IMG/VR virus record: IMGVR_UViG_3300001679_000112
Location: 1 to 21,924 of that record
Origin: a virus
Reading direction: 5' to 3' (one strand)
DNA length: 21,924 nucleotides
Positions 7,539-19,128 of the stretch are shown piece by piece. The notes under the pieces were generated by a model, which saw only the letters and a program-made list of their open reading frames with translations, was not told where the DNA came from and searched no databases. Made by a program: the position numbers and the translations under genes. Position 1 is the first letter of the stretch; each line of letters opens with the position of its first letter.

Positions 7539-7731
7539 TATATTCTACATAAGGACTAAAGACGGTACGGAGATTGCTGTATTTGATTTAGAGGTAGGTG
7601 AAGATGAAATATCGTATAGTTATAATGCTGTAGAAGAAGATATAAAGTCTGAACCTTATGAAGATGAAGTTCAGGTAATATTATCTAAAATTATAACAGA
7701 AAGAATGATGAAAGAGAGGGAAACTGGTTGA
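7528..7731 (+). CDS. Small acidic hypothetical protein upstream of gene 41
   Basis: The 67-residue product is acidic, with a beta-rich first half (FYIRTKDGTEIAVFDLEV) and a helical second half ending in ERMMKERETG. It has no recognised motif. Its TGA stop is nested in the TTG start of the helicase gene (TTGA), so the two are translationally coupled. T4-like cyanophages, as I recall, also have a short gene between uvsX and 41, so position supports it being real. The function is unknown. Confidence 0.6.
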   Translation: MTSDIFYIRTKDGTEIAVFDLEVGEDEISYSYNAVEEDIKSEPYEDEVQVILSKIITERMMKERETG

Positions 7732-8837
7732 GTATTGAAAACACGATTCTATCGAATCTAATATATAATGAAGACTATGCTAGAAAGGTAATTGTATTCT
7801 TAAAAGACGATTACTTTCAGAATCATAGTGATAAAAATGTCTTTAGTGAAATACAAACTTTCTACGCAAAGTATAATTCTGTACCCACTAAAGAAGCATT
7901 AACAATTGCTATTGACGGAAGAGACGATTTAAGTTCTACTGATTATGAAGAAACTTCGGCACTAGTAGGTTCGTTAAAAGAAACAGAAAGTAACGAAGAA
8001 TGGTTGCTTGATGAGACTGAAAAGTTCTGTAAAGATAAAGCAGTTTATAATGCTATCATGGAATCAATTAGTATTATTGATGACGAGGAAAATAAACAAC
8101 AGTCTGAGGGTTCAATCCCTGAGTTATTATCAACAGCATTAGCAGTATCTTTTGATACTCATATTGGTCACGACTTCTTAGATAATGCTGAAGAACGTTT
8201 TGAGTTTTATCAACGTAAAGAGGAACGTATTCCTTTTGATATTGAATATCTTAATAAGATTACTAAGGGTGGTGTTCCTCGTAAAACGTTAAACATCCTA
8301 ATGGCAGGAACTGGTGTAGGTAAAACGATTGGTATGTGTCATATGGCAGCGTCAAATCTCACTATGGGTAAAAATGTATTATACATTACTGCTGAGATGG
8401 CAGAGGAACGTATTGCTGAACGTATTGATGCTAATCTAATGGACGTAGAAGTTGACTCTCTTGTTGATTTATCATTTGAACGATATTCTAAAAAGATTGC
8501 AGCGATTCAATCTAAAACAAAAGGTAAGTTAATTGTTAAAGAATATCCTACATCAACTGCCCATGCTGGTCACTTTAGACACCTATTAAAAGAATTAGCA
8601 CTTAAAAAGAACTTTATGCCTGATATCATTTATATTGATTATTTGAATATTTGTGCTTCTCAAAGGTTAAATGGTGCTAATAACGTAAACAGTTATACAT
8701 ACGTTAAGGCAATTGCCGAAGAATTAAGGGGTCTTGCTGTTGAATTTAATGTTCCAGTATGGTCTGCTACACAAGTTAATCGTTCTGGTTTACTTCTGAG
8801 TCGTTTGGTCTACCAGCAACTGCTGACTTATTCCTAG
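7728..8837 (+). CDS. 41: gp41-type replicative DNA helicase, N-terminal and ATPase part (frameshifted)
   Basis: This is the DnaB-family 5'-3' helicase of T4-like phages. The TTG start at 7728 follows an AGAGAGGG site and overlaps the previous stop. Residues 1-150 are the N-terminal helical domain. The RecA-like domain carries Walker A GTGVGKT at 194-200 and Walker B IIYIDYLNI with Asp304. Homology with T4 gp41 runs through ATQVNRSG at 347-354. After that this frame gives 15 unrelated residues and a stop at 8835. The true continuation (SESFGLPATAD) lies in the -1 frame from 8795. As read, the protein lacks the last DNA-binding loop and the arginine-finger region, so it should not be an active hexameric helicase unless the frame is restored. 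Confidence 0.9.
   Translation: MSIENTILSNLIYNEDYARKVIVFLKDDYFQNHSDKNVFSEIQTFYAKYNSVPTKEALTIAIDGRDDLSSTDYEETSALVGSLKETESNEEWLLDETEKFCKDKAVYNAIMESISIIDDEENKQQSEGSIPELLSTALAVSFDTHIGHDFLDNAEERFEFYQRKEERIPFDIEYLNKITKGGVPRKTLNILMAGTGVGKTIGMCHMAASNLTMGKNVLYITAEMAEERIAERIDANLMDVEVDSLVDLSFERYSKKIAAIQSKTKGKLIVKEYPTSTAHAGHFRHLLKELALKKNFMPDIIYIDYLNICASQRLNGANNVNSYTYVKAIAEELRGLAVEFNVPVWSATQVNRSGLLLSRLVYQQLLTYS
8787..8797 (+). other. Frameshift and short deletion junction in gene 41
   Basis: The 0-frame reads Gly at 8787-8789. The -1 frame continues with Phe (8789-8791), Thr, Ser (8795-8797), then the conserved ESFGLPATAD. As I recall T4 gp41, about a dozen residues lie between RSG and ESAGLPATAD; only about three are present here even with the frame corrected. 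One event removing roughly 27-30 bases, not a multiple of three, would explain both the lost loop and the lost frame. A sequencing or assembly artefact is equally compatible. Confidence 0.75.
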
Positions 8838-8878
8838 CATTAATTCAGACTGAAGAATTACAAGAATTAAATCAAGTA

Positions 8879-9091
8879 ATGGTGAAACAATTGAAGAATC
8901 GTTATGGTGATGAAAACTTAAACAAACGATTTGTTATTGGTATTAACAAAGCAAAAATGAAATGGTATGACGTCGAACAAGATGCTCAATCAGGTATAAT
9001 GGGTAATTCTGATAAAGAAGACTTTGAAGAATCAGTTTTTACTAGCAAAGGGAGCAAGAATAAAAACGCATTCAAAGACTTCAAAGTGTAA
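8879..9091 (+). CDS. 41: gp41 helicase C-terminal fragment, out of frame
   Basis: From 8795 this frame encodes the conserved end of gp41: SESFGLPATAD, then a TEELQEL helix, KQLKNRYGD and GINKAKMKW, which carry the arginine-finger and core strands of the RecA-like fold. The only in-frame ATG is at 8879, has no Shine-Dalgarno, and lies inside the conserved domain, so it is unlikely to be an independent gene. The entry gives that formal start; the homologous segment begins at 8795. It ends KDFKV, close to the promoter region before 9134. Joined with 7728-8789 it would give a protein of about 454 residues, compared with 475 in T4. Confidence 0.8.
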   Translation: MVKQLKNRYGDENLNKRFVIGINKAKMKWYDVEQDAQSGIMGNSDKEDFEESVFTSKGSKNKNAFKDFKV

Positions 9092-9133: not shown

Positions 9134-10348
9134 ATGAAATCTTTTAAGTCGTACCTTTCCGAAGAAAAACTGACTCATCTTGAGCACGTCGAAGACGCTA
9201 TCTTTGACTTCGGTGTGTCTGGTGCTAAACAGGCTCTTACCATACTTAACGACGTTGCCCATTCTTTAGAAGGACATTCTAAAAAGTCTGTTAATATTCA
9301 AGCAAAAGTAGATGGTGCTCCGGCAGTAATTGCTGGTATCAATCCGGAGAACGGTAAGTTCTTTGTTGGTACAAAGGCATTATTCAACAAAACCCCTAAA
9401 ATCAATTACACAAATGCTGATATTGATAAAAATCATCCTGGAGGATTAGGGGATAAGTTAAAGGTCGCACTCAAAGAATTCCCTAAGATGGGACTTAAAG
9501 GGGTTTATCAAGGTGACTTTATGTTTACTTCTGATGAGTTAAAGAAAGAAACCATTGACGGTGACAACTATATTACATTCACTCCAAATACTATTACATA
9601 CGCAATACCTGCCGATTCCGATTTAGCAAAAACTGTATTAAAATCTAAAGTAGGTGTTATCTGGCATACAACATATACTGGCAAAACTATTGCCGATTTG
9701 TCTGCTCAATTTAAAATAAGTCTATCTTCATTTAAACGTCAAAAAGATGTTTGGTTCACTGATACTAATTTTGTAGATGCTTCGGGTACTGCTACATTTA
9801 CTGTAAAAGAATTAGGTGAAATTAAGAAAAAACTAAATCACGCAAATATGGAATTAAAGAAATTGAATACTAAAGATATGGGTATTCTATTTGGTAAAAC
9901 TGAAATTGCTAAAATGGTTAAAATTTATATCAACGGTCAAGTTAGAAAGGGTGAAAGGTTTTCTAATAAACAGAAAGCAGTTGCTACTTTCATTGATTTT
10001 ATCCGTTCTGATTATGAGAAGAAGATCTCTAAATTAAAATCAGTTAAAGGTAAGGACAAAAAGAAAAAACAATTAGACGACTTTACAAAACAACTACGTT
10101 CGGTTGCTGGTACATTTGCCCACACATTAGAGTGGCATAATGATGTAATTGATATCAAAATGATGATTGTTAAGAAGTTAGAAAAGGTTAATCAAATACC
10201 AGCATTCGTTAAGACAGCAAACGGTTATAAAACAACAGGTCCAGAGGGTTTCGTTGCTATTGACACTTTGTCTAACAGTGCAGTTAAACTAGTCAATCGA
10301 TTGGAGTTTAGTAAAAATAACTTCAATGCGGTAAAGAGTTGGGGGTAA
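9134..10348 (+). CDS. Capsid-targeting-signal protein with ligase-like nucleotidyltransferase motifs
   Basis: The 404-residue protein opens with the shared signal MKSFKSYLSE, whose L-S-E at 8-10 fits the T4 prohead-protease consensus. The body shows the order of covalent nucleotidyltransferase (DNA/RNA ligase) motifs. Motif I is AKVDGAP with candidate nucleotidyl lysine Lys58. A motif III-like YQGDF lies at 125-129, motif IV EGFVA at 371-375, and motif V AVKLVN with Lys385. Residues 310-330 are very basic (KGKDKKKKQ). I believe this family is DUF6267 in databases, but I cannot confirm that. The inferred role is a packaged nucleic-acid ligase or related AMP/GMP-transferring enzyme delivered at infection. 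It lacks a recognisable OB-fold, so substrate and activity are uncertain. Confidence 0.75.
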   Translation: MKSFKSYLSEEKLTHLEHVEDAIFDFGVSGAKQALTILNDVAHSLEGHSKKSVNIQAKVDGAPAVIAGINPENGKFFVGTKALFNKTPKINYTNADIDKNHPGGLGDKLKVALKEFPKMGLKGVYQGDFMFTSDELKKETIDGDNYITFTPNTITYAIPADSDLAKTVLKSKVGVIWHTTYTGKTIADLSAQFKISLSSFKRQKDVWFTDTNFVDASGTATFTVKELGEIKKKLNHANMELKKLNTKDMGILFGKTEIAKMVKIYINGQVRKGERFSNKQKAVATFIDFIRSDYEKKISKLKSVKGKDKKKKQLDDFTKQLRSVAGTFAHTLEWHNDVIDIKMMIVKKLEKVNQIPAFVKTANGYKTTGPEGFVAIDTLSNSAVKLVNRLEFSKNNFNAVKSWG

Positions 10349-10349
10349 T

Positions 10350-11702
10350 ATGAAACGATTTAGTCATTATTTAACTGAAACTGCTCTATTAAGTGAGGGG
10401 TCGTTTGCTAAATTTAAAGTTGGAGAGCAACCTAAGTTTTCAGATAGAGATAAAGAAAAGATTGGAAAACGTCTTTCCGATTATGTGAAGATGAACCCTA
10501 ACGATATTCAAGACATTCATTATAGCGCAGTCGGCAAACAAGTAAAATCATTCTTAAATACGAATCAAACGGAAATTAAAGTTACTGATAAGAAAGTATT
10601 AAAACGACTTGCTAAATACATGTCTATATTTACAGTAGACGTAAATGGTGATAATGTTAAGGTGACGCAAGGAAAGGGTAAAGTTCTATTCAAATATAGT
10701 TCTGGTCGTGGTTTTTTCTTTCAGTCTGAAAAGAGTGTTAGTAATCCAACTACGGCACAACAAGAAACAGGAACAATCAAATTCTTAGAGTTCTATCAAT
10801 ACAATAGTGGCAAGCATCCTACAAGAAACCAAATAAACGATATTGTTGGTTTTATTTTTGACGAGAATTGGTATAAATCTTTCATCAATCATACAAACGC
10901 AATAACGTCTGTTATTAAACTTAATAAGAAACATAAGATAGAATTAGACAGTGATGATTCTTCGATCGGTCAAGTTATATTTAAAATGCTGAAGAAGAAT
11001 CATAGTTTTAAACAAAGTAACGATAACTGGAACCCTGCTGATATTTGGATTTACAATAGTTCATCAAAGTCTAATATATTAACTGAATTAGATTCTGCCG
11101 AATCCGTAACTGAATTCAACATAATAATGAAGAAGTTATTCAATTCTGGCGACTTGATGGGTATATCGTTAAAGAAATCAGTTAAACGAACAACAGCAAA
11201 AACGATTGACACTTCTAATGTTAAACCTTTTGCGTTAAAGTTTGCTCCTACCGTTTATGACGTTAAGAATACATATTGGGACATTAAGACTTCTGGATAC
11301 CCTAAAGGGTTTATGATAAGAGCTAGGGCAAAGGCTGCAGCTATTACTAAGGTGGGTGATATTAAAATTTACTTTGAAGGAAAAATTGATAAGAGTTCAG
11401 AATTTCTTGGTGCCATTGCGGCTCCACTGGTTAAAACTCCAGGATCTGATACTGTTAATTTTGAGGTAGATATAGATACTATTAAATCTATGGCATCTAA
11501 AGTTTCTGCTTCAGGTCCTATGACGTTTAAAAACATGGATATGTTAGAGGAGATGGATGACATCAAACTAATTTATGTATATGTTATGATGAGATACGCA
11601 TCAGTCATTTATAAGTCAGGAAACGATAATCTTAAAAAACTTGCTATGTCTGGTTATAAGTTAAATGACTATTCTTCTATTCACTACAAAGTAGGAGGAT
11701 GA
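10350..11702 (+). CDS. Capsid-targeting-signal protein, possible PD-(D/E)XK nuclease
   Basis: The 450-residue protein starts MKRFSHYLTE (L-T-E at 8-10), with a second possible cut L-S-E at 14-16. It begins two bases after the previous stop, behind a G-rich site. The centre contains an acidic residue in a helix (Glu139, QETGT), then NPADIWIY with Asp231, then GISLKK at 271-276. That spacing and pattern (helix E, strand D, strand x-L-K) resembles PD-(D/E)XK restriction-type nucleases, but I have no alignment and the second acidic residue is not obvious. The C-terminal 130 residues look alpha/beta and unrelated to anything I know. A packaged nuclease is a hypothesis; a non-enzymatic internal protein is the alternative. 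Confidence 0.65.
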   Translation: MKRFSHYLTETALLSEGSFAKFKVGEQPKFSDRDKEKIGKRLSDYVKMNPNDIQDIHYSAVGKQVKSFLNTNQTEIKVTDKKVLKRLAKYMSIFTVDVNGDNVKVTQGKGKVLFKYSSGRGFFFQSEKSVSNPTTAQQETGTIKFLEFYQYNSGKHPTRNQINDIVGFIFDENWYKSFINHTNAITSVIKLNKKHKIELDSDDSSIGQVIFKMLKKNHSFKQSNDNWNPADIWIYNSSSKSNILTELDSAESVTEFNIIMKKLFNSGDLMGISLKKSVKRTTAKTIDTSNVKPFALKFAPTVYDVKNTYWDIKTSGYPKGFMIRARAKAAAITKVGDIKIYFEGKIDKSSEFLGAIAAPLVKTPGSDTVNFEVDIDTIKSMASKVSASGPMTFKNMDMLEEMDDIKLIYVYVMMRYASVIYKSGNDNLKKLAMSGYKLNDYSSIHYKVGG

Positions 11703-11764
11703 TGTGAAAGTTATATGCTATATAAGAAAGAAAAAACTAATTTAATAATAATAGGAATAAGAAA

Positions 11765-11995
11765 ATGAAAACATTTAGAGAACTAATGAACGAAGGAACT
11801 GATTCGTACATGTTAATGCATCCAACATTGGATAAACAAATCATCGTTAAAAAAGCAAAAGATGCTAAAGATGCGGCTAAGCAAGCCAACAAGAAATTAA
11901 AATTAAAGAACGTATCTTCGTCGTATGCTATGTCTAAGAGTGAAATGCAACGCGCAGAATGGGATAGACAAGAACCAGACGCTATTATCGTATAA
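11765..11995 (+). CDS. Small basic protein with capsid-targeting-like N-terminus
   Basis: The 76-residue product starts MKTFRELMNE, which keeps Met-Lys, Phe4 and Glu10 of the shared signal but has Met at position 8. Its signal is the closest in the block to the T4 form, which I recall as MKTYQEFI-E. An AGGA site lies about 10 bases upstream. Residues 28-50 are Lys/Ala-rich and probably one long helix (AKDAKDAAKQANKKLKLK), suited to binding DNA. The end is acidic with a hydrophobic tail (EPDAIIV). It resembles small T4 internal proteins in size and charge. No enzymatic motif is present. Confidence 0.65.
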   Translation: MKTFRELMNEGTDSYMLMHPTLDKQIIVKKAKDAKDAAKQANKKLKLKNVSSSYAMSKSEMQRAEWDRQEPDAIIV

Positions 11996-11999
11996 ACCA

Positions 12000-12308
12000 A
12001 TGAAAGTGATATTAACATTTGAAGACTTCTGTAATATTCTCGAAAAGAAAGAGAAGAAGGAAGGCTGCAAGTGGTGCCATAAGCGTGACTATAAAGACGA
12101 GTATGAGAAGTTTCAATCTTCTGAAAAAATGAAGAATTATCGTGGTGAGTTAAATAAATACAGACGTGACCACGGTGTGTATGGTAATGGTGATGGTTTA
12201 GATGCATCGCATAAAAATGGTAAAATAGTTGGATTTGAAAAGGCATCTGTAAATAGAGGTCGTGCTGAGAAATCTAGGTTAAAGGGATCTAAAAGGAAAA
12301 AGAGATGA
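12000..12308 (+). CDS. Small basic protein with HNH/treble-clef-like features
   Basis: ATG 12000 is chosen over the upstream ATG at 11925 because the latter lies in the previous gene and adds sequence of no family character. The 102-residue product has a hydrophobic start with I-L-E at 13-15, a possible diverged packaging signal. A CKWC pair near residue 23 follows, then the block YRGELNKYRRDHG followed by YGNGDGLDASHKNG and a basic tail (RLKGSKRKKR). I recall this central block as conserved across phages; the Cys pair plus Asp-x-x-His suggests a zinc-bound HNH or treble-clef fold, unproven. There is no Shine-Dalgarno; reinitiation four bases after the previous stop is likely. Its stop overlaps the next ATG (ATGA). 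Confidence 0.6.
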   Translation: MKVILTFEDFCNILEKKEKKEGCKWCHKRDYKDEYEKFQSSEKMKNYRGELNKYRRDHGVYGNGDGLDASHKNGKIVGFEKASVNRGRAEKSRLKGSKRKKR

Positions 12309-12883
12309 AATCGTTTAAACAACATCTAGAAGAAGCAAAGAATAAACCAGTCGTATTTACGTTTGGTCGGTTCAATCCTATTACAAAAGGACATGGTGCT
12401 CTAATTGATTTTGTTGTAAAATCTGCTAAAGGCGGAGAAGGAATGATATTCACTTCTCAAAGTCAAGATGCTAAAAAGAATCCTTTGGATTATAAGACTA
12501 AGACTAAGTATTTGAAAAAGTTCTTTCCAAAAGCAACGATTGTTAAAAATACTTCACTTAAAACTCCATTTGATATTTTAAGATGGTTATCAGACCAAGG
12601 GTATAAAGATGTGACTATGGTTGTTGGTGGTGATAGAGTTGCTGAATTTGAAAAAAGAATGAGACCATACGTTAATCATAAAGACCCTAAGAAATCATAC
12701 GACTTTGATAAATTTGAAGTTGTGAATTCTGGAGCAAGAGTTCCTGGTGTTTCTGGTACTGATATGAGAAATCATGTTAAAAACGATAGTGTTGACGAAT
12801 TTAAAAAGGGATTACCTACAGGTACATCGACTAAAGATGCTGAGGCATTTTTTAACGCAGTTAAGAAAGGAATGAAGTTATGA
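12305..12883 (+). CDS. NMN adenylyltransferase/cytidylyltransferase-like enzyme with capsid-targeting signal
   Basis: The signal MKSFKQHLEE (L-E-E at 8-10) is followed at once by a nucleotidyltransferase domain of the HIGH superfamily. The stretch FTFGRFNPITKGH at 18-30 holds the nucleotide-binding T-x-G-H motif (Thr27, His30), VVGGDR lies at 106-111, and SGTDMR at 150-155 corresponds to the I-S-S-T-x-[IV]-R motif. Such enzymes join ATP or CTP to a phosphate group, as in NAD or phospholipid-precursor synthesis. Its size (192 residues) fits NadM/NadD-like proteins. The signal suggests the enzyme is packaged rather than made only in the infected cell (inference). The true substrate cannot be told from sequence. 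It overlaps both neighbours by four bases. Confidence 0.85.
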   Translation: MKSFKQHLEEAKNKPVVFTFGRFNPITKGHGALIDFVVKSAKGGEGMIFTSQSQDAKKNPLDYKTKTKYLKKFFPKATIVKNTSLKTPFDILRWLSDQGYKDVTMVVGGDRVAEFEKRMRPYVNHKDPKKSYDFDKFEVVNSGARVPGVSGTDMRNHVKNDSVDEFKKGLPTGTSTKDAEAFFNAVKKGMKL

Positions 12884-13158
12884 AGTCGTTTAGACAACAT
12901 TTAACTGAAGACAAACTGAAGTGGAAAAAGTCTAAGGAAGTTTCAAAAGAGAATTTGAAACTTATTAACTTAAAGAAATTCACTGCTGAGATAGAATGGA
13001 CATCAGGTAAATATACTATTGTTAAAGTAGGTGGAACACTTTCATACAAATACTATATTATGATAAACGATGGTAAAGTGCGTCCATCGGGTCATGGTAA
13101 AGGTGCACAAACATATTCAAAATTAAACATGGCAAAATTTTACTTCGAGGAATTATAA
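12880..13158 (+). CDS. Small basic protein with capsid-targeting signal
   Basis: The 92-residue product starts MKSFRQHLTE (L-T-E at 8-10). The remainder is Lys-rich and looks like a compact beta fold: alternating hydrophobics in TAEIEWTSGKYTIVKVGG and YKYYIMIND, then SGHGKGAQTYSK. There are no catalytic motifs. After cleavage the mature part would be about 82 residues, similar to T4 internal proteins in size and charge. It overlaps the upstream gene by four bases (ATGA) and shares one base with the next ATG (TAATG), so it is in a tightly coupled translation unit. Confidence 0.7.
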   Translation: MKSFRQHLTEDKLKWKKSKEVSKENLKLINLKKFTAEIEWTSGKYTIVKVGGTLSYKYYIMINDGKVRPSGHGKGAQTYSKLNMAKFYFEEL

Positions 13159-13859
13159 TGAAATCTTTTAAGCAATGGTTAGATGAACGTACAAGAGCCT
13201 CTCAAGGAGGTCACAACGATTCTTGGACTGCTGATTTACTTAAACGACTTTTACCTAAGAAGTGGGTACATAAGTTTAAACGAGCAGTACATGCCGAAAG
13301 ATATAAAGCTGCTTTAAAGTTGTATCATGAGATGGTAAGAGCATATAATAGAGATCCTGATGCACAACAGTCTCCTGGCATGATGGTTATGAATCCTAAA
13401 GGATTAGCAATGGCAAAGGCTGCTCAGGCATTTGGATTATCTACTAAAGAATTTAAGAAAGTATTAGACCACAAAACAAGATACGAAGAAGTTGAACTTG
13501 AAGAAGAAATAACTAAGGTAGATTTATCTCAAGTTGAGAAGTTTGCTGATAAAATCTTTGCTAAAGTTGGTATTGATATTGAGTTTACTAGGCATTTCTT
13601 AGAGAGAGTTAATGATAAACGCAACGGAAAGGATATTACAGTTGGTGAATTAACTAGATTGTTCAAACAAACATATAAGAAACACGGTAAGAAGATTGCT
13701 AAAATGGGTGACGATGCTGAAGCAGTATTACACGACTTACAAACAGATATTAATATGCCGTTTGTGTTACAGTGGGATGGTAAAGAGTTTGATTTGATTG
13801 CTAAGACAATCATGAGAAAGAAAGATTTCAAAACTAACGATCCGAAATTGAAAGTATAG
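13158..13859 (+). CDS. Two-domain protein with capsid-targeting signal and RelE/DUF4258-like C-terminal domain
   Basis: The signal is MKSFKQWLDE (L-D-E at 8-10). Residues 11-108 form a basic, mostly helical domain. An acidic linker at 109-118 contains L-E-E at 114-116, a second potential prohead-protease site exactly between domains. Residues 120-233 form the second domain. It includes FTRHFLERVNDKRNGKDIT (143-161), which resembles the HA/HF-x-x-R core of DUF4258/BrnT-like RelE-fold toxins, and later a strand-rich end (MPFVLQWDGKEFDLIAKTIM). I recall this second domain as conserved in T4-like phages. An mRNA-interferase-like role is a hypothesis; the family match is from memory. It has a GAGGAATT site and a TAATG junction with the previous gene. 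Confidence 0.75.
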   Translation: MKSFKQWLDERTRASQGGHNDSWTADLLKRLLPKKWVHKFKRAVHAERYKAALKLYHEMVRAYNRDPDAQQSPGMMVMNPKGLAMAKAAQAFGLSTKEFKKVLDHKTRYEEVELEEEITKVDLSQVEKFADKIFAKVGIDIEFTRHFLERVNDKRNGKDITVGELTRLFKQTYKKHGKKIAKMGDDAEAVLHDLQTDINMPFVLQWDGKEFDLIAKTIMRKKDFKTNDPKLKV

Positions 13860-13863
13860 TTAT

Positions 13864-13871
13864 TATAAATA
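13864..13871 (+). promoter_or_regulatory. T4-late-type promoter box before 13877
   Basis: TATAAATA lies just after the previous stop and only five bases before ATG 13877. In T4 late promoters this box covers about -13 to -6, so transcription would start on or next to the A of the ATG. The sequence between (TTGGT) has no ribosome binding site. Confidence 0.6.
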
Positions 13872-13876
13872 TTGGT

Positions 13877-14845
13877 ATGAAATCATTTAAACAACATATT
13901 AATGAAGAGAAACTATTTGAGGAATTCCTTGAAGAGAAACTCATCATGTTATCTAATGGTAAGAAATACGGTCAAATTGTATTCTTAGCAGGCGGTGCAG
14001 GTTCGGGTAAAGGTTTTGCTTCTACTAACTTTATGCAGAAAGAACTGTTTAAGGTACGTGACGTTGATGAATGGAAGAAAACATTCATGGCAATTGCTGA
14101 TATACATTCCAACCCTGAAAAATATGGTAAGATGCAAAAGGCTGGTTCTAAAATCCCTAAAGGGGAGTATGCCAAAGTTAAAGGTTTGAACCTAAAGAAA
14201 CCAGGCGATGTTGAAAAATTACACTTCTTTATTAAGAAATTAGGTCTTAAAGATAAGACATTAGATATGATGTTAAGTCAAATGAAGAATAAGACAACAT
14301 TGCCAAACATTATGTTTGATATTACAGCAAAAGATACTAAAGACATTGGTCAGTTTATGCCACGCTTATTAAAGGCAGGATATAACCCAGCAAACATTCA
14401 TTTAGTATGGGTATTGACTGATTATAATATCGCAATTAAACAAAATGCAGAGAGGTCAAGAGTAGTTCCTTCTGATATTATGTTGGCAACCCATAAGGGT
14501 GCTTCGGAAACAGTTTATAAATATGTAACAGGTGCTGGTAGAAGAATGGCAATCAATGGTGAGATACATGTTATTTTGAATAATAAACAAAATACTATTA
14601 TGTTTGAACCATCGGGTGCTGATAGAACTTCTAATATGAAGACGAAAGGCGAAGACGAAGATACAAACAAAATGGTAACAAAAGTTAATACTGCTGTCGT
14701 TAAAGACTTCACATATTTGACATTAAAGAAACGTGGTAAACCTATGACGTCGGAGAAGAAAGTTATGAAATCTCTGTTTGATTGGGTAGTTGATAACATC
14801 CCAAAAAGTGATTTCCAAAAGGCACTATCGGATACAGTTAAGTAA
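13877..14845 (+). CDS. Zeta-toxin-like P-loop kinase with capsid-targeting signal
   Basis: The 322-residue protein starts MKSFKQHINE (I-N-E at 8-10), with a second candidate cut L-E-E at 18-20. Walker A follows as FLAGGAGSGKGF with Lys45. Further on, NIHLVWVLTDYNIAI and NAERSRVVPSDIM (about 178-202) resemble the strand and arginine-bearing lid of zeta-toxin/polynucleotide-kinase proteins. Zeta toxins phosphorylate UDP-N-acetylglucosamine or related nucleotides; other relatives phosphorylate nucleic-acid ends, and I cannot decide between them. No antitoxin-like partner is adjacent. The late-type promoter box directly upstream and the lack of a Shine-Dalgarno fit late, possibly leaderless, expression for packaging. 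Confidence 0.8.
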   Translation: MKSFKQHINEEKLFEEFLEEKLIMLSNGKKYGQIVFLAGGAGSGKGFASTNFMQKELFKVRDVDEWKKTFMAIADIHSNPEKYGKMQKAGSKIPKGEYAKVKGLNLKKPGDVEKLHFFIKKLGLKDKTLDMMLSQMKNKTTLPNIMFDITAKDTKDIGQFMPRLLKAGYNPANIHLVWVLTDYNIAIKQNAERSRVVPSDIMLATHKGASETVYKYVTGAGRRMAINGEIHVILNNKQNTIMFEPSGADRTSNMKTKGEDEDTNKMVTKVNTAVVKDFTYLTLKKRGKPMTSEKKVMKSLFDWVVDNIPKSDFQKALSDTVK

Positions 14846-14846
14846 A

Positions 14847-14939
14847 ATGTGTCCTATATGTTGGACGGTAGGTGTTTTATCGTTCTTTGGTTTATATAAA
14901 GGTAGTAAGATATGTACGCGTGGAAAACAGAAGAAGTAA
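14847..14939 (+). CDS. Possible 30-aa CPxC membrane microprotein
   Basis: An ATG one base after the kinase stop opens a 30-residue frame. It begins MCPICW, continues with a hydrophobic stretch (VGVLSFFGLY) and ends basic (RGKQKK). I recall short CPxC-plus-membrane proteins in T4-like cyanophages, but this one is shorter. No ribosome binding site is visible, and it overlaps the next gene by 28 bases. Weak support. Confidence 0.25.
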   Translation: MCPICWTVGVLSFFGLYKGSKICTRGKQKK

Positions 14940-15244
14940 TTGACCTCTTAGAAGGCGCTCCCGTAAGGTTGAAGTTAAAATATACCAACGGTGAGTTAAG
15001 GCAATTCACTAGAGATATGGGAACTGCTGATACATGCAATTGCCATGCGGGTGAAAAGAGTTGTGGATTTATATCCGAATTGGAATGGACTGAAATGTTA
15101 CATACTTGGGATATAGATGGAAGAATTGGTGTTTGGGATATTGGTACTCATACGTTTACTAATATACTAGCAGGTGATATTGATAAAATTATTGGGCATT
15201 CGGAAGATGTAGATCGTTCCAGTTGTTGTTCAAAGGAGAAATAA
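14912..15244 (+). CDS. WYL_2/Sm-like SH3 beta-barrel protein, copy 1
   Basis: The 110-residue product has a beta-barrel pattern: LLEGAPVRLKLKYTNGELRQFTRD near the start, IGVWDIGTHTF in the second half, then a terminal DIDKIIG. This arrangement resembles the phage family once called DUF2693 (WYL_2, Sm-like SH3 fold). The middle carries several cysteines and a histidine (TCNCHAGEKSC), with more Cys at the end (SSCCSKEK); these may bind a metal. The next gene encodes a clear paralogue without the Cys insert. Function is unknown; the fold suggests nucleic-acid or peptide binding. Only a weak ribosome binding site precedes the ATG. Confidence 0.7.
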   Translation: MYAWKTEEVIDLLEGAPVRLKLKYTNGELRQFTRDMGTADTCNCHAGEKSCGFISELEWTEMLHTWDIDGRIGVWDIGTHTFTNILAGDIDKIIGHSEDVDRSSCCSKEK

Positions 15245-15245
15245 A

Positions 15246-15506
15246 ATGACTAAAGCAGATTTAATAAAAGAATTAAAAAACGGCGTAGTTAGAGTAAGAA
15301 TTGACGGAGAATTAAAGCAATTCACTCGTAATGCTTCTTTAACTGGTTTAACTGAAGACGATATGGATAACGTATTAACTGATGCTAAAATCAAGGAAGC
15401 AGATACTGGCGCAACCATTGGTGTATTTGAATTAGGTTCAGGTAAATTAACTACAATTACAAATAAAGAGATGAAAGATATCATTGGAATGGGTCTAGAC
15501 AAATGA
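15246..15506 (+). CDS. WYL_2/Sm-like SH3 beta-barrel protein, copy 2
   Basis: The 86-residue product shares three blocks, in the same order, with the preceding gene: ELKNGVVRVRI plus GELKQFTRN, IGVFELGSGKL, and KEMKDIIG. It lacks the Cys/His insert of copy 1. A strong AAGGAG site precedes ATG 15246. The pair probably arose by tandem duplication and diverged. Its stop overlaps the next ATG (ATGA). No catalytic residues are evident. Confidence 0.72.
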   Translation: MTKADLIKELKNGVVRVRIDGELKQFTRNASLTGLTEDDMDNVLTDAKIKEADTGATIGVFELGSGKLTTITNKEMKDIIGMGLDK

Positions 15507-16579
15507 AGAATTTTAACGAATTAAGAGAAATAATCTCTGAAGACTATTTCACTGTTCAATACTATAATGGTAATGGCAGTGTAGTAGACGATAAATTTAA
15601 GAACTTCAAGTCTAAAGCAGAAGCAGATAAGTATGCTAAGAAAGGTAATAAAATAGACAGTGTAGGTGGAGAGTATAAAACTTTCAAAGTTAAAGGTCGT
15701 ATGGAATCTGTTGAACTTGATGAATATGGATTAGCAAAAGGTCGTGGATTTCCAGGCATTAAAGCCGATAACACTGTTGATAAAACCACAGGTAAAAAGA
15801 AGAAAAAGAAGAACAAACGAGTCCTTGGGCAAAATAAAAACATAGCTTATAATTACGATAAAGATAAACGTAAAGAATCTGTCGATGTAGATAATTCAGA
15901 AGATACTTTAGAAGAGAATCTGAAAGGTATTGCCAAAGCATTAACCTCTATGGCGGGTAAACCTGAATATAAAAAGGTTGCAAGAAATCTTAAATCGTTA
16001 GCAATGAGAGCCGGTGAGGGTGATAAGAAAGCAGCTAAGCAAATTTCAACTCAATTAGATAAACTAATTATGAAAGTGGATAAGAAATCTGCTAAAAAAT
16101 TAATGAAACTTGCCGACCTTACTGCTACATATGAGTCGGTTGAAGAGGGTTGGAAGAAGAAAAAGAAGAACGAAGAATGCGGACTCGACCACGACACACT
16201 GAAGAAGAAAAAGATGAAGAAGCACATGGACGATGTTCATGAAGATGAAGAACTTGAAGAAGGAGTTTCTCTTTCTAAGAAAGGAAACTATGAAGTTACA
16301 GTTGACGGTAAATCGGCAGTTGGTATTAGAATCGGACTTCGTTTTAAAGGTAAATTAATTGTTCCTGGTACAAAACAGAAAGGTCTGTTTGTAATGGGAT
16401 TCAATAAGAAGGATGGTAAGCATAAATTACCTCCAGGTGCTACAATAGTTAAGGACAGTGGTAAATACGTTCACATTGGATTTAAGAAAGTGGATGATAT
16501 TATTGCTTATGCCGTGCTTGAAAATATTACCGAAGAAGTGGCAAACAAAACTTTTACAGAGTTTAGAAATTTAACATAA
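15503..16579 (+). CDS. Lysine-rich multi-block internal protein with several candidate prohead-protease sites
   Basis: The 358-residue protein begins MKNFNELREIISE, a longer version of the shared signal ending I-S-E at 11-13. Further (L/I)-x-E sites fall in acidic linkers at 72-74 (L-D-E), 136-138 (L-E-E) and 251-253 (L-E-E). They separate a small N-terminal block, a basic block with a run of lysines (about 98-106), a helical Lys/Ala-rich block ending in more Lys runs (218-240), and a beta-rich C-terminal domain (254-345). The linkers share an E-S-V-(E/D) start at 68, 125 and 211. This is what a processed, DNA-binding internal head protein would look like, by analogy with T4 internal proteins. 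No enzymatic motif is seen. Confidence 0.72.
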   Translation: MKNFNELREIISEDYFTVQYYNGNGSVVDDKFKNFKSKAEADKYAKKGNKIDSVGGEYKTFKVKGRMESVELDEYGLAKGRGFPGIKADNTVDKTTGKKKKKKNKRVLGQNKNIAYNYDKDKRKESVDVDNSEDTLEENLKGIAKALTSMAGKPEYKKVARNLKSLAMRAGEGDKKAAKQISTQLDKLIMKVDKKSAKKLMKLADLTATYESVEEGWKKKKKNEECGLDHDTLKKKKMKKHMDDVHEDEELEEGVSLSKKGNYEVTVDGKSAVGIRIGLRFKGKLIVPGTKQKGLFVMGFNKKDGKHKLPPGATIVKDSGKYVHIGFKKVDDIIAYAVLENITEEVANKTFTEFRNLT

Positions 16580-18105: not shown

Positions 18106-19128
18106 ATGGATTATATTACTCAAAAGTACATTGGCATCGTTGGTGTACGTCTAGAACAATTCAAAAAGAAAGGAAAAGGACTTTGGCAATGCCGTTGTCC
18201 TCTATGTGGGGATTCTCAAAAAGATAAGAATAAGGCACGTGGATTCATATTTGAATATGATGGCGACGTTCTATATAAATGTCATAACTGTGGTGTGTCT
18301 CTGGGGTTATCTCAATTCCTTTCAGAAGTTGACCCAAACTTAAAAAAGCAGTATATTTTAGAAAGGTTTGGTAATAAGAATAAACGTAAAAAGGTTGAAC
18401 CTAATGACGATTTATTCAAATCAAAGAAAATCAAATTTAAGAAGAAACCGTCTACATTAGGCGGTGCTACAAATGTCTTAAAACTCGCACCAAATCACCC
18501 AGCCAAACTATATGTTGACAGTAGGAGAATACCTCTAGACCAGCAGGCGAGGTTGTACTATACTGACACCTTTAAGTCATGGACTAACACGATAGTTAAA
18601 AATAAATTTAAGTCCGTTAAACGGGAAGAGGCACGTCTGATTATTCCATTCTTTGGAGAAGATGGTCAATTGATAGCATTTCAAGGTAGAACCTTAGACC
18701 CTAACAACGAATTACGCTATATAACTATTAAGGTTGATGAATCGGTATGTAAGTTATATGGATTAGATAAAATGGACACAACAAAACCTGTGTATGTTCT
18801 TGAAGGACCAATTGACAGTATGTTTATTCCGAATGCTATTGCTATGGCAGGTTCTGATATGAATAAAAAGTGTGTAGCAAATAAAAGTGCTGATTTTGTT
18901 ATTGTAATGGATAATGAGAACAGAAACAAAGAGATTGTCAATAAGATTGAAGGATTTATTAATGCTGGCTTCTCAGTTTGTGTATGGGATGAAAATATTA
19001 AACAGAAAGACGTTAATGATATGGTATTAAGTGGTATGACTCCGGAAAGTATTTTTGAGTCAATTAAACAACACACATATAAGGGGTTACAAGCAAAGAT
19101 GGCATTAAAGAAATGGAGTAGGGTTTGA
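18106..19128 (+). CDS. 61: T4 gp61-type DNA primase (DnaG-like)
   Basis: The 340-residue protein has an N-terminal zinc-binding domain with CPLC at 31-34 and CHNC at 59-62. A primase core follows, with the TOPRIM motifs VLEGPIDSMF (Glu233, Asp237), VIVMDNE (Asp269) and QKDVNDMV (Asp302/Asp305 area). This is the gp61 arrangement, which makes RNA primers for lagging-strand synthesis together with the gp41 helicase. All expected metal-binding acidic residues are present. A strong promoter abuts the ATG, with no ribosome binding site. Its TGA stop overlaps a TTG start of the next small gene. Confidence 0.93.
   Translation: MDYITQKYIGIVGVRLEQFKKKGKGLWQCRCPLCGDSQKDKNKARGFIFEYDGDVLYKCHNCGVSLGLSQFLSEVDPNLKKQYILERFGNKNKRKKVEPNDDLFKSKKIKFKKKPSTLGGATNVLKLAPNHPAKLYVDSRRIPLDQQARLYYTDTFKSWTNTIVKNKFKSVKREEARLIIPFFGEDGQLIAFQGRTLDPNNELRYITIKVDESVCKLYGLDKMDTTKPVYVLEGPIDSMFIPNAIAMAGSDMNKKCVANKSADFVIVMDNENRNKEIVNKIEGFINAGFSVCVWDENIKQKDVNDMVLSGMTPESIFESIKQHTYKGLQAKMALKKWSRV

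What the first reader, a model, noticed from the sequence alone, without database searches (positions are those of the whole stretch)
9134..16579. A block of unrelated proteins sharing a ten-residue capsid-targeting-like tag
Seven genes (9134, 10350, 11765, 12305, 12880, 13158, 13877) start M-K-x-F-x-x-x-(L/I/M)-x-E with identical spacing, although their bodies differ. An eighth (15503) has a version three residues longer. T4 internal proteins carry a similar N-terminal capsid-targeting sequence, cut by gp21 after (L/I)-x-E. Six of the seven fit the cut rule at residue 10 exactly. This suggests a cargo locus: many enzymes with a common address label, packaged in the head and injected with DNA. 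The T4 comparison is from memory; packaging is inference.
Basis: partly seen in the sequence, partly recalled or inferred. Interest (0 to 1): 0.88.

Follow-up and report, generated by a model that had tools for sequence, protein, structure and literature searches.

The report
Phage cargo genes with a packaging tag
A marine T4-type phage puts the same ten-residue N-terminal label on at least seven unrelated proteins; this looks like the address tag that T4 uses to load proteins into its head for injection, and it is far more widespread, and on larger enzymes, than the classical T4 case.

Summary
Seven ORFs of one block begin MKxFxxx[LIM]xE, no other ORF start in the window does, and their bodies share no detectable similarity. 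In IMG/VR a DNA pattern for the tag hits at least 120 stretches (scan stopped at its limit); a same-composition pattern with two positions swapped hits none. The 241 tagged proteins held here fall into 85 BLAST body clusters. 108 of 120 loci carry T4-type markers, and the same 12 large records carry gp23 and gp21. Published virion mass spectrometry supports packaging of homologues: in S-CREM2 all four proteins tagged at the annotated start were virion-detected; tagged cytidylyltransferases were also detected in S-SCSM1 and S-SZBM1, while three other tagged proteins were not. In sister phages two of the window's cargos are fused: the second domain has lost the targeting half of its tag but keeps [LI]xE at the junction. 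Most likely this is a T4-style internal-protein cargo locus carrying enzymes. Cleavage and injection remain inferred.

The parts
9134..9163 (+). tag MKSFKSYLSE
   Evidence: disordered in the AF2 model (residues 1-16 pLDDT<50)
9134..10348 (+). tagged DUF6267 (PF19782, E=5e-108); invariant KxDGxP, QGD, EGxV, KxVxR: ligase-like nucleotidyltransferase motifs
10350..10379 (+). tag MKRFSHYLTE
10350..11702 (+). tagged 450-aa protein of unknown function (phrog_1462, E=2.5e-18)
11765..11794 (+). tag MKTFRELMNE (M at position 8, L at 7: weakest of the seven)
11765..11995 (+). tagged 76-aa protein, unknown
12000..12308 (+). untagged ORF (phrog_6437); start MKVILTFEDFCNILEK at most tag-like, register not met
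12305..12334 (+). tag MKSFKQHLEE
12305..12883 (+). tagged cytidylyltransferase/NMNAT-like enzyme; homologues found in three cyanophage virions by published MS
12880..12909 (+). tag MKSFRQHLTE
12880..13158 (+). tagged 92-aa protein, unknown; in homologues the stretch right after E10 varies in length
13158..13187 (+). tag MKSFKQWLDE
13158..13859 (+). tagged 233-aa protein; fused behind the cytidylyltransferase in sister phages, keeping only [LI]xE at the junction
13877..13906 (+). tag MKSFKQHINE
13877..14845 (+). tagged P-loop kinase (zeta-toxin / adenylate kinase / polynucleotide kinase-like fold)
15503..15541 (+). longer tag variant MKNFNELREIISE
15503..16579 (+). 358-aa lysine-rich protein, unknown
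7728..9091 (+). gp41-type DnaB helicase (left border; frameshifted in this contig)
18106..19128 (+). gp61-type primase (right border of the island)
   Evidence: synteny

Best explanation
The block is a T4-style internal-protein cargo locus. Each protein carries an N-terminal capsid-targeting sequence of about ten residues: aromatic residues at 4 and 7 dock it to the prohead scaffold core, and [LI]8-x-E10 is the cut site of the gp21-type prohead protease. The protein is co-assembled into the prohead, cut after residue 10, kept in the head with the DNA, and presumably injected at infection. The cargo differs from the small T4 inhibitors in including enzymes (a ligase-like DUF6267 protein, a cytidylyltransferase/NMNAT-like enzyme, a P-loop kinase) and in sitting between helicase and primase. 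Shown: tag, register, co-occurrence with gp21/gp23 in relatives, the same cut rule by sequence, and tagged homologues in published virion preparations. Inferred: targeting, cleavage and injection in this phage, and what the enzymes do in the host.
For: (1) Register identical to T4 IPII/IPIII; T4 genetics: first 10 residues suffice, 4 and 7 target, 8 and 10 are processed (PMC9026906). (3) Pattern scan: at least 120 stretches; same-composition swapped control 0. (4) 241 tagged proteins in 85 body clusters; 108 of 120 loci have T4-type markers; the same 12 of 24 records carry gp21 and gp23. (5) gp23 and gp21 of tag-bearing phages end their propeptides in FLTE, LLSE, VITE and the like. (6) One tagged 106-aa family sits between portal and gp21 in many loci, the T4 gp67/68 slot. 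(7) S-CREM2: all four proteins tagged at the annotated start (SAM hydrolase, gp13, APH-like kinase, cytidylyltransferase) are in its virion list; chance 0.003. Tagged cytidylyltransferases are in S-SCSM1 and S-SZBM1 virions. (8) Fused homologues of 12305+13158 carry one tag but keep LDE/LEE/IME at the junction. (9) The tag is disordered in the DUF6267 model and absent from the same enzymes in some phages.
Against: No virion data exist for this phage and it is uncultured. Three tagged cyanophage proteins (S-SCSM1 gp30, S-SZBM1_191 and _192) were not in the virion lists. Some virion proteins of the same block carry no tag. Authors of the cyanophage proteomes note that the enzymes could be contaminants. 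No published N-terminus was found. The window itself holds no gp21. 11765 and 15503 fit less well.
Confidence: 0.87

Rival explanations
1. The tag is a docking peptide for another phage machine, for example the replisome or late-transcription complex, since the island lies between helicase gp41 and primase gp61.
For: Location between helicase and primase; the enzymes act on nucleotides.
Against: The tag also sits on genes among terL, sheath, portal and gp21, on T4 internal proteins, and on virion-detected proteins; its end matches the gp23 cut site.
Confidence: 0.07
2. The shared start reflects recent duplication of one gene start or a DNA/RNA-level element such as a translation leader, not a functional peptide.
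For: Identical spacing; an AAA/AAG second codon is common in strongly expressed genes (general knowledge).
Against: Codons differ between copies; the residue pattern is kept over body families and the swapped-position control gives no hits; fused genes keep only the cut site; DNA upstream of the starts is not shared.
Confidence: 0.03
3. Packaging is real but without injection: the tagged proteins are prohead core (scaffold) components like T4 gp67/gp68, removed or trapped in the head.
For: A tagged family occupies the slot between portal and gp21; several small tagged proteins are not detected in mature virions.
Against: Tagged enzymes persist in mature virions; catalytic motifs are conserved, which a scaffold does not need.
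Confidence: 0.15

Closest known systems
Phage T4 internal proteins IPI-IPIII with capsid-targeting sequence, processed by gp21 (Tequatrovirus; PMC9026906, PMC12373910, Repoila 1994 as cited there)
   Same: Ten-residue N-terminal peptide in the same register, L/I-x-E end, unrelated bodies, several genes per genome, gp21/gp23-type head in relatives.
   Different: Here at least seven in one block inside the helicase-primase region, with enzymes up to 450 aa; T4 internal proteins are small inhibitors (IPII/IPIII lie next to gene e); marine, uncultured phage.
Virion-associated enzymes of T4-like cyanophages (S-CREM2, S-SCSM1, S-SZBM1)
   Same: Homologous cytidylyltransferase in virions; tag present on it in all three.
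   Different: Reported as virion-associated without any tag being noted in the passages read here; fewer tagged genes per genome than in the window.
Prohead-protease-processed ejection proteins of giant phages (phiKZ, SPN3US)
   Same: Many different head proteins cut after Glu and ejected.
   Different: Cut motif S/A-x-E in phiKZ; no short common N-terminal address of this kind described in the text read.

Membership tests
T4-type capsid-targeted internal proteins | About ten N-terminal residues in the T4 CTS register (aromatic 4, aromatic/His 7, L/I 8, E 10) | tested here: met
   11765 (L7, M8) and 15503 only partly
T4-type capsid-targeted internal proteins | Same tag on otherwise unrelated proteins | tested here: met
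T4-type capsid-targeted internal proteins | Genome encodes a gp21-type protease and gp23-type capsid | tested here: inconclusive
   Not in the 21.9 kb window; present in the 90 kb relative and 12 of 24 tag-bearing records
T4-type capsid-targeted internal proteins | Cut rule L/I-x-E shared with gp23 and gp21 | tested here: met
   By sequence in relatives
T4-type capsid-targeted internal proteins | Proteins present in the virion | tested here: inconclusive
   Homologues in other phages: 6 of 9 tagged proteins detected, p=0.0018; none for this phage
T4-type capsid-targeted internal proteins | Tag removed after residue 10; protein injected | not testable with these tools
   Needs N-terminomics and infection assays
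Covalent nucleotidyltransferase/ligase superfamily (for DUF6267) | KxDG and following motifs in order | tested here: met
   Invariant K58 D60 G61, G127-D128, E371-G372-V374, K385-V387-R389 in 21 sequences
Covalent nucleotidyltransferase/ligase superfamily (for DUF6267) | Ligase fold | tested here: inconclusive
   No significant PDB match; LigA and a capping enzyme appear at E 1.5-2.6

The most novel reading that the evidence does not exclude
T4-superfamily phages in the environment use one short address label to load a large, exchangeable set of enzymes (in this phage possibly a ready-made nucleic-acid and NAD repair kit: ligase-like, kinase, NMNAT-like) into the head, sometimes as tagged polyproteins cut apart inside the prohead; the label predicts the injected protein repertoire from sequence alone.
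Probability: 0.4. Interest if true: 0.92.

Novelty: new variant of a known kind. Interest (0 to 1): 0.8.

Why it matters
Which phage proteins enter the cell with the DNA is a long-standing open question, and packaged proteins are the first to meet host defences. If this tag is what it appears to be, the packaged repertoire of T4-type phages becomes readable from genomes: 85 body clusters were found with one capped scan plus the relatives. It also gives a simple reason why cytidylyltransferases, kinases and a SAM hydrolase turn up in cyanophage virions, and supplies many natural tags for loading proteins into phage heads.

Tried and rejected
DNA-level repeat or shared leader: rejected, codons and upstream DNA differ. 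Chance: rejected. Homologous bodies: rejected for direct similarity, though 12305 and 13158 are joined through fused proteins in sister phages. Foldseek of the DUF6267 model gave nothing significant, so the ligase reading rests on motifs. The kinase model has low confidence (mean pLDDT 65.5); its matches (E about 5e-5 to 1e-3) only say P-loop kinase. The DLP6 paper has no virion proteomics. In PA5oct (a phage with MS annotation) no strict tag was found; the homologue of one tagged family is MS-detected with MKSFRDYYDAS, i.e. without E10, compatible but not a test of cutting. The S-CREM1 proteome (14 proteins) was too shallow to use. The 'eighth' gene 15503 could not be confirmed as tagged.

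Full report
Observation. The window is a 21.9 kb IMG/VR fragment of a T4-type phage related to Kyanoviridae (Methylophilales phage Melnitz, Pelagibacter phage HTVC008M): DNA polymerase, UvsX, DnaB helicase and primase lie in the same order. Seven ORFs between helicase and primase begin MKxFxxx[LIM]xE; no other ORF start in the window does. A shuffle of residues 2-20 of the 36 genes gives 0.004 matches on average and never more than one. The bodies show no similarity to each other and hit different families: DUF6267 (9134), cytidylyltransferase (12305), a zeta-toxin-like P-loop kinase (13877), and proteins of unknown function. Codons differ between copies.

Conservation. Loci recruited by body similarity carry the tag on homologues and on further proteins, with the register kept while residues 3, 5, 6 and 9 vary. 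In 60 distinct tags from these loci, position 7 is F, Y, W or H in 51, although position 7 was not part of the search rule. At first-Met sites the motif occurs in 48 of 563; elsewhere in 5 of 3,150, at least two of which are DUF6267 starts preceded by another Met.

Comparison with T4. T4 IPII and IPIII begin MKTYQEFIAEA in NC_000866. A review of T4 genetics states that the first ten residues of IPIII suffice for packaging, that residues 4 and 7 matter most for targeting and 8 and 10 for processing, and that gp21 cuts after L/I-x-E (PMC9026906). T4 internal proteins share nothing but this leader and block type IV restriction enzymes (PMC12373910).

Breadth. The same pattern with positions 4 and 6 exchanged hit nothing. 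Together with the earlier loci this gives 241 distinct tagged proteins of at least 50 residues in 85 BLAST body clusters, among them adenylate kinase (E=2e-40), an HD_4 domain and a methyltransferase-like protein. Of the 120 loci, 108 carry a T4-type marker, and the 12 that do not are mostly short. Among 24 larger records, 12 carry gp23 and the same 12 carry gp21. Tagged genes lie in the helicase-primase island, among terL/sheath/gp15, and one 106-aa family lies between portal and gp21 in many loci, the place of T4 gp67/68.

Cut rule. In the 90 kb relative G001 (DUF6267 75% identical) gp21 begins MRLISEINEQVNYLTE|G and gp23 has TALDE|ANVTG before the mature domain. In other tag-bearing records gp23 shows FLSE|A, FLTE|A, LLSE|A, MLHE|A, LLTE|A, VLNE|A. 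These cut positions are read by homology, not measured.

Virion evidence. Three T4-like cyanophages have published CsCl/LC-MS virion lists. In S-CREM2 the four proteins with the tag at the annotated start are gp6 SAM hydrolase (MKDFDSFLEE), gp13 (MKDLHSFLTE), gp14 APH-like kinase (VKRFDAFLTE, annotated with a Val start codon) and gp154 cytidylyltransferase (MKNFSSFLTE); all four are in the list of 52 (PMC10665884). The Cas9-like gp12, also listed, has FASFMAE|A further in. In S-SCSM1 gp91 (MKSFLQFLKE) is listed (PMC9602691) and gp30 (MKTFKQFMSE) is not annotated as a virion protein. In S-SZBM1 gp140 (MRFRQFIIE) is listed (PMC9146016), gp191 and gp192 are not. Six of nine against the three backgrounds gives p=0.0018; S-CREM2 alone p=0.003. 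These tests were made after gp154, gp91 and gp140 had been seen, the motif used for them was loosened, and detection depends on size and depth, so the values are indicative. The three homologues of 12305 are 33-39% identical to the window's enzyme. The authors allow for contamination. None of the passages read there mentions a targeting tag, and a library search pairing capsid targeting with cyanophages found no paper that makes this link; supplementary files were not read.

A natural experiment. Homologues of 12305 and 13158 are separate tagged genes in the window and some relatives but one protein with one N-terminal tag in others (L016, L017, L020, L029), and G001 (L075) has the same junction. 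At the junction the fused proteins lack MKSFKEY yet keep LDE|G, LEE|G or IME|G, aligned with tag residues 8-10 of split copies such as MKSFKEYIEE|GTLKD. That is what a single address plus two cut sites would predict: packaging as a polyprotein and separation by the protease. A relic of recent fusion cannot be excluded, but three variants all keep [LI]xE.

Cargo. The tag is disordered in the DUF6267 model (residues 1-16) and missing in the same enzymes of P-HM2 and others, so the catalytic domains do not need it. DUF6267 has invariant KxDGxP, QGD, EGxV and KxVxR in the order of ligase-type nucleotidyltransferase motifs (motif assignment from general knowledge), but Foldseek gave no significant match. 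12305 matches the cytidylyltransferase-like family above its cut-off. 13877 models as a P-loop kinase (low confidence). A packaged ligase, kinase and NMNAT-like enzyme would fit immediate repair of nucleic acid or NAD damaged by host defence; this is inference.

Verdict. Targeting, cleavage and injection in this phage are not shown.

Noticed in passing
window 8750-8840: DnaB helicase reading frame is broken: the window lacks 28 bases present in near-identical contigs L007, L008, L064, L065. Assembly error or real deletion.
   Followed up: partly
NC_000866 18966-19130 (L268): T4 gp61.1 (54 aa, next to primase gene 61) begins MKTFKEFIKEDMVAGDSGG: it fits the tag, resembles tagged genes just upstream of primase in L180 and L215, and may be an unrecognised further capsid-targeted T4 protein.
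   Followed up: partly
L134 2357-3911, L176 6505-9422, L222: Other loci with four to five neighbouring tagged genes of unrelated bodies.
   Followed up: no
L124:3736, L176:9422, L185:6037: Tagged small proteins with YHGT/FYRG-like motifs that look like ADP-ribosyltransferases, as T4 Alt is; no meaningful Pfam match for the two tested.
   Followed up: partly
MK797984 126689-127291 (L247): PA5oct EST35_0202, marked ESI-MS/MS, is a homologue of a tagged family but starts MKSFRDYYDAS: positions 4 and 7 kept, E10 lost.
   Followed up: partly
L094 16625-16690: In phage C48C1 the annotated cytidyltransferase start seems too late: the frame upstream reads IKNFSQYLLEEEREVYFTFGRMNPP, a tag-like stretch; start codon unclear.
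   Followed up: no
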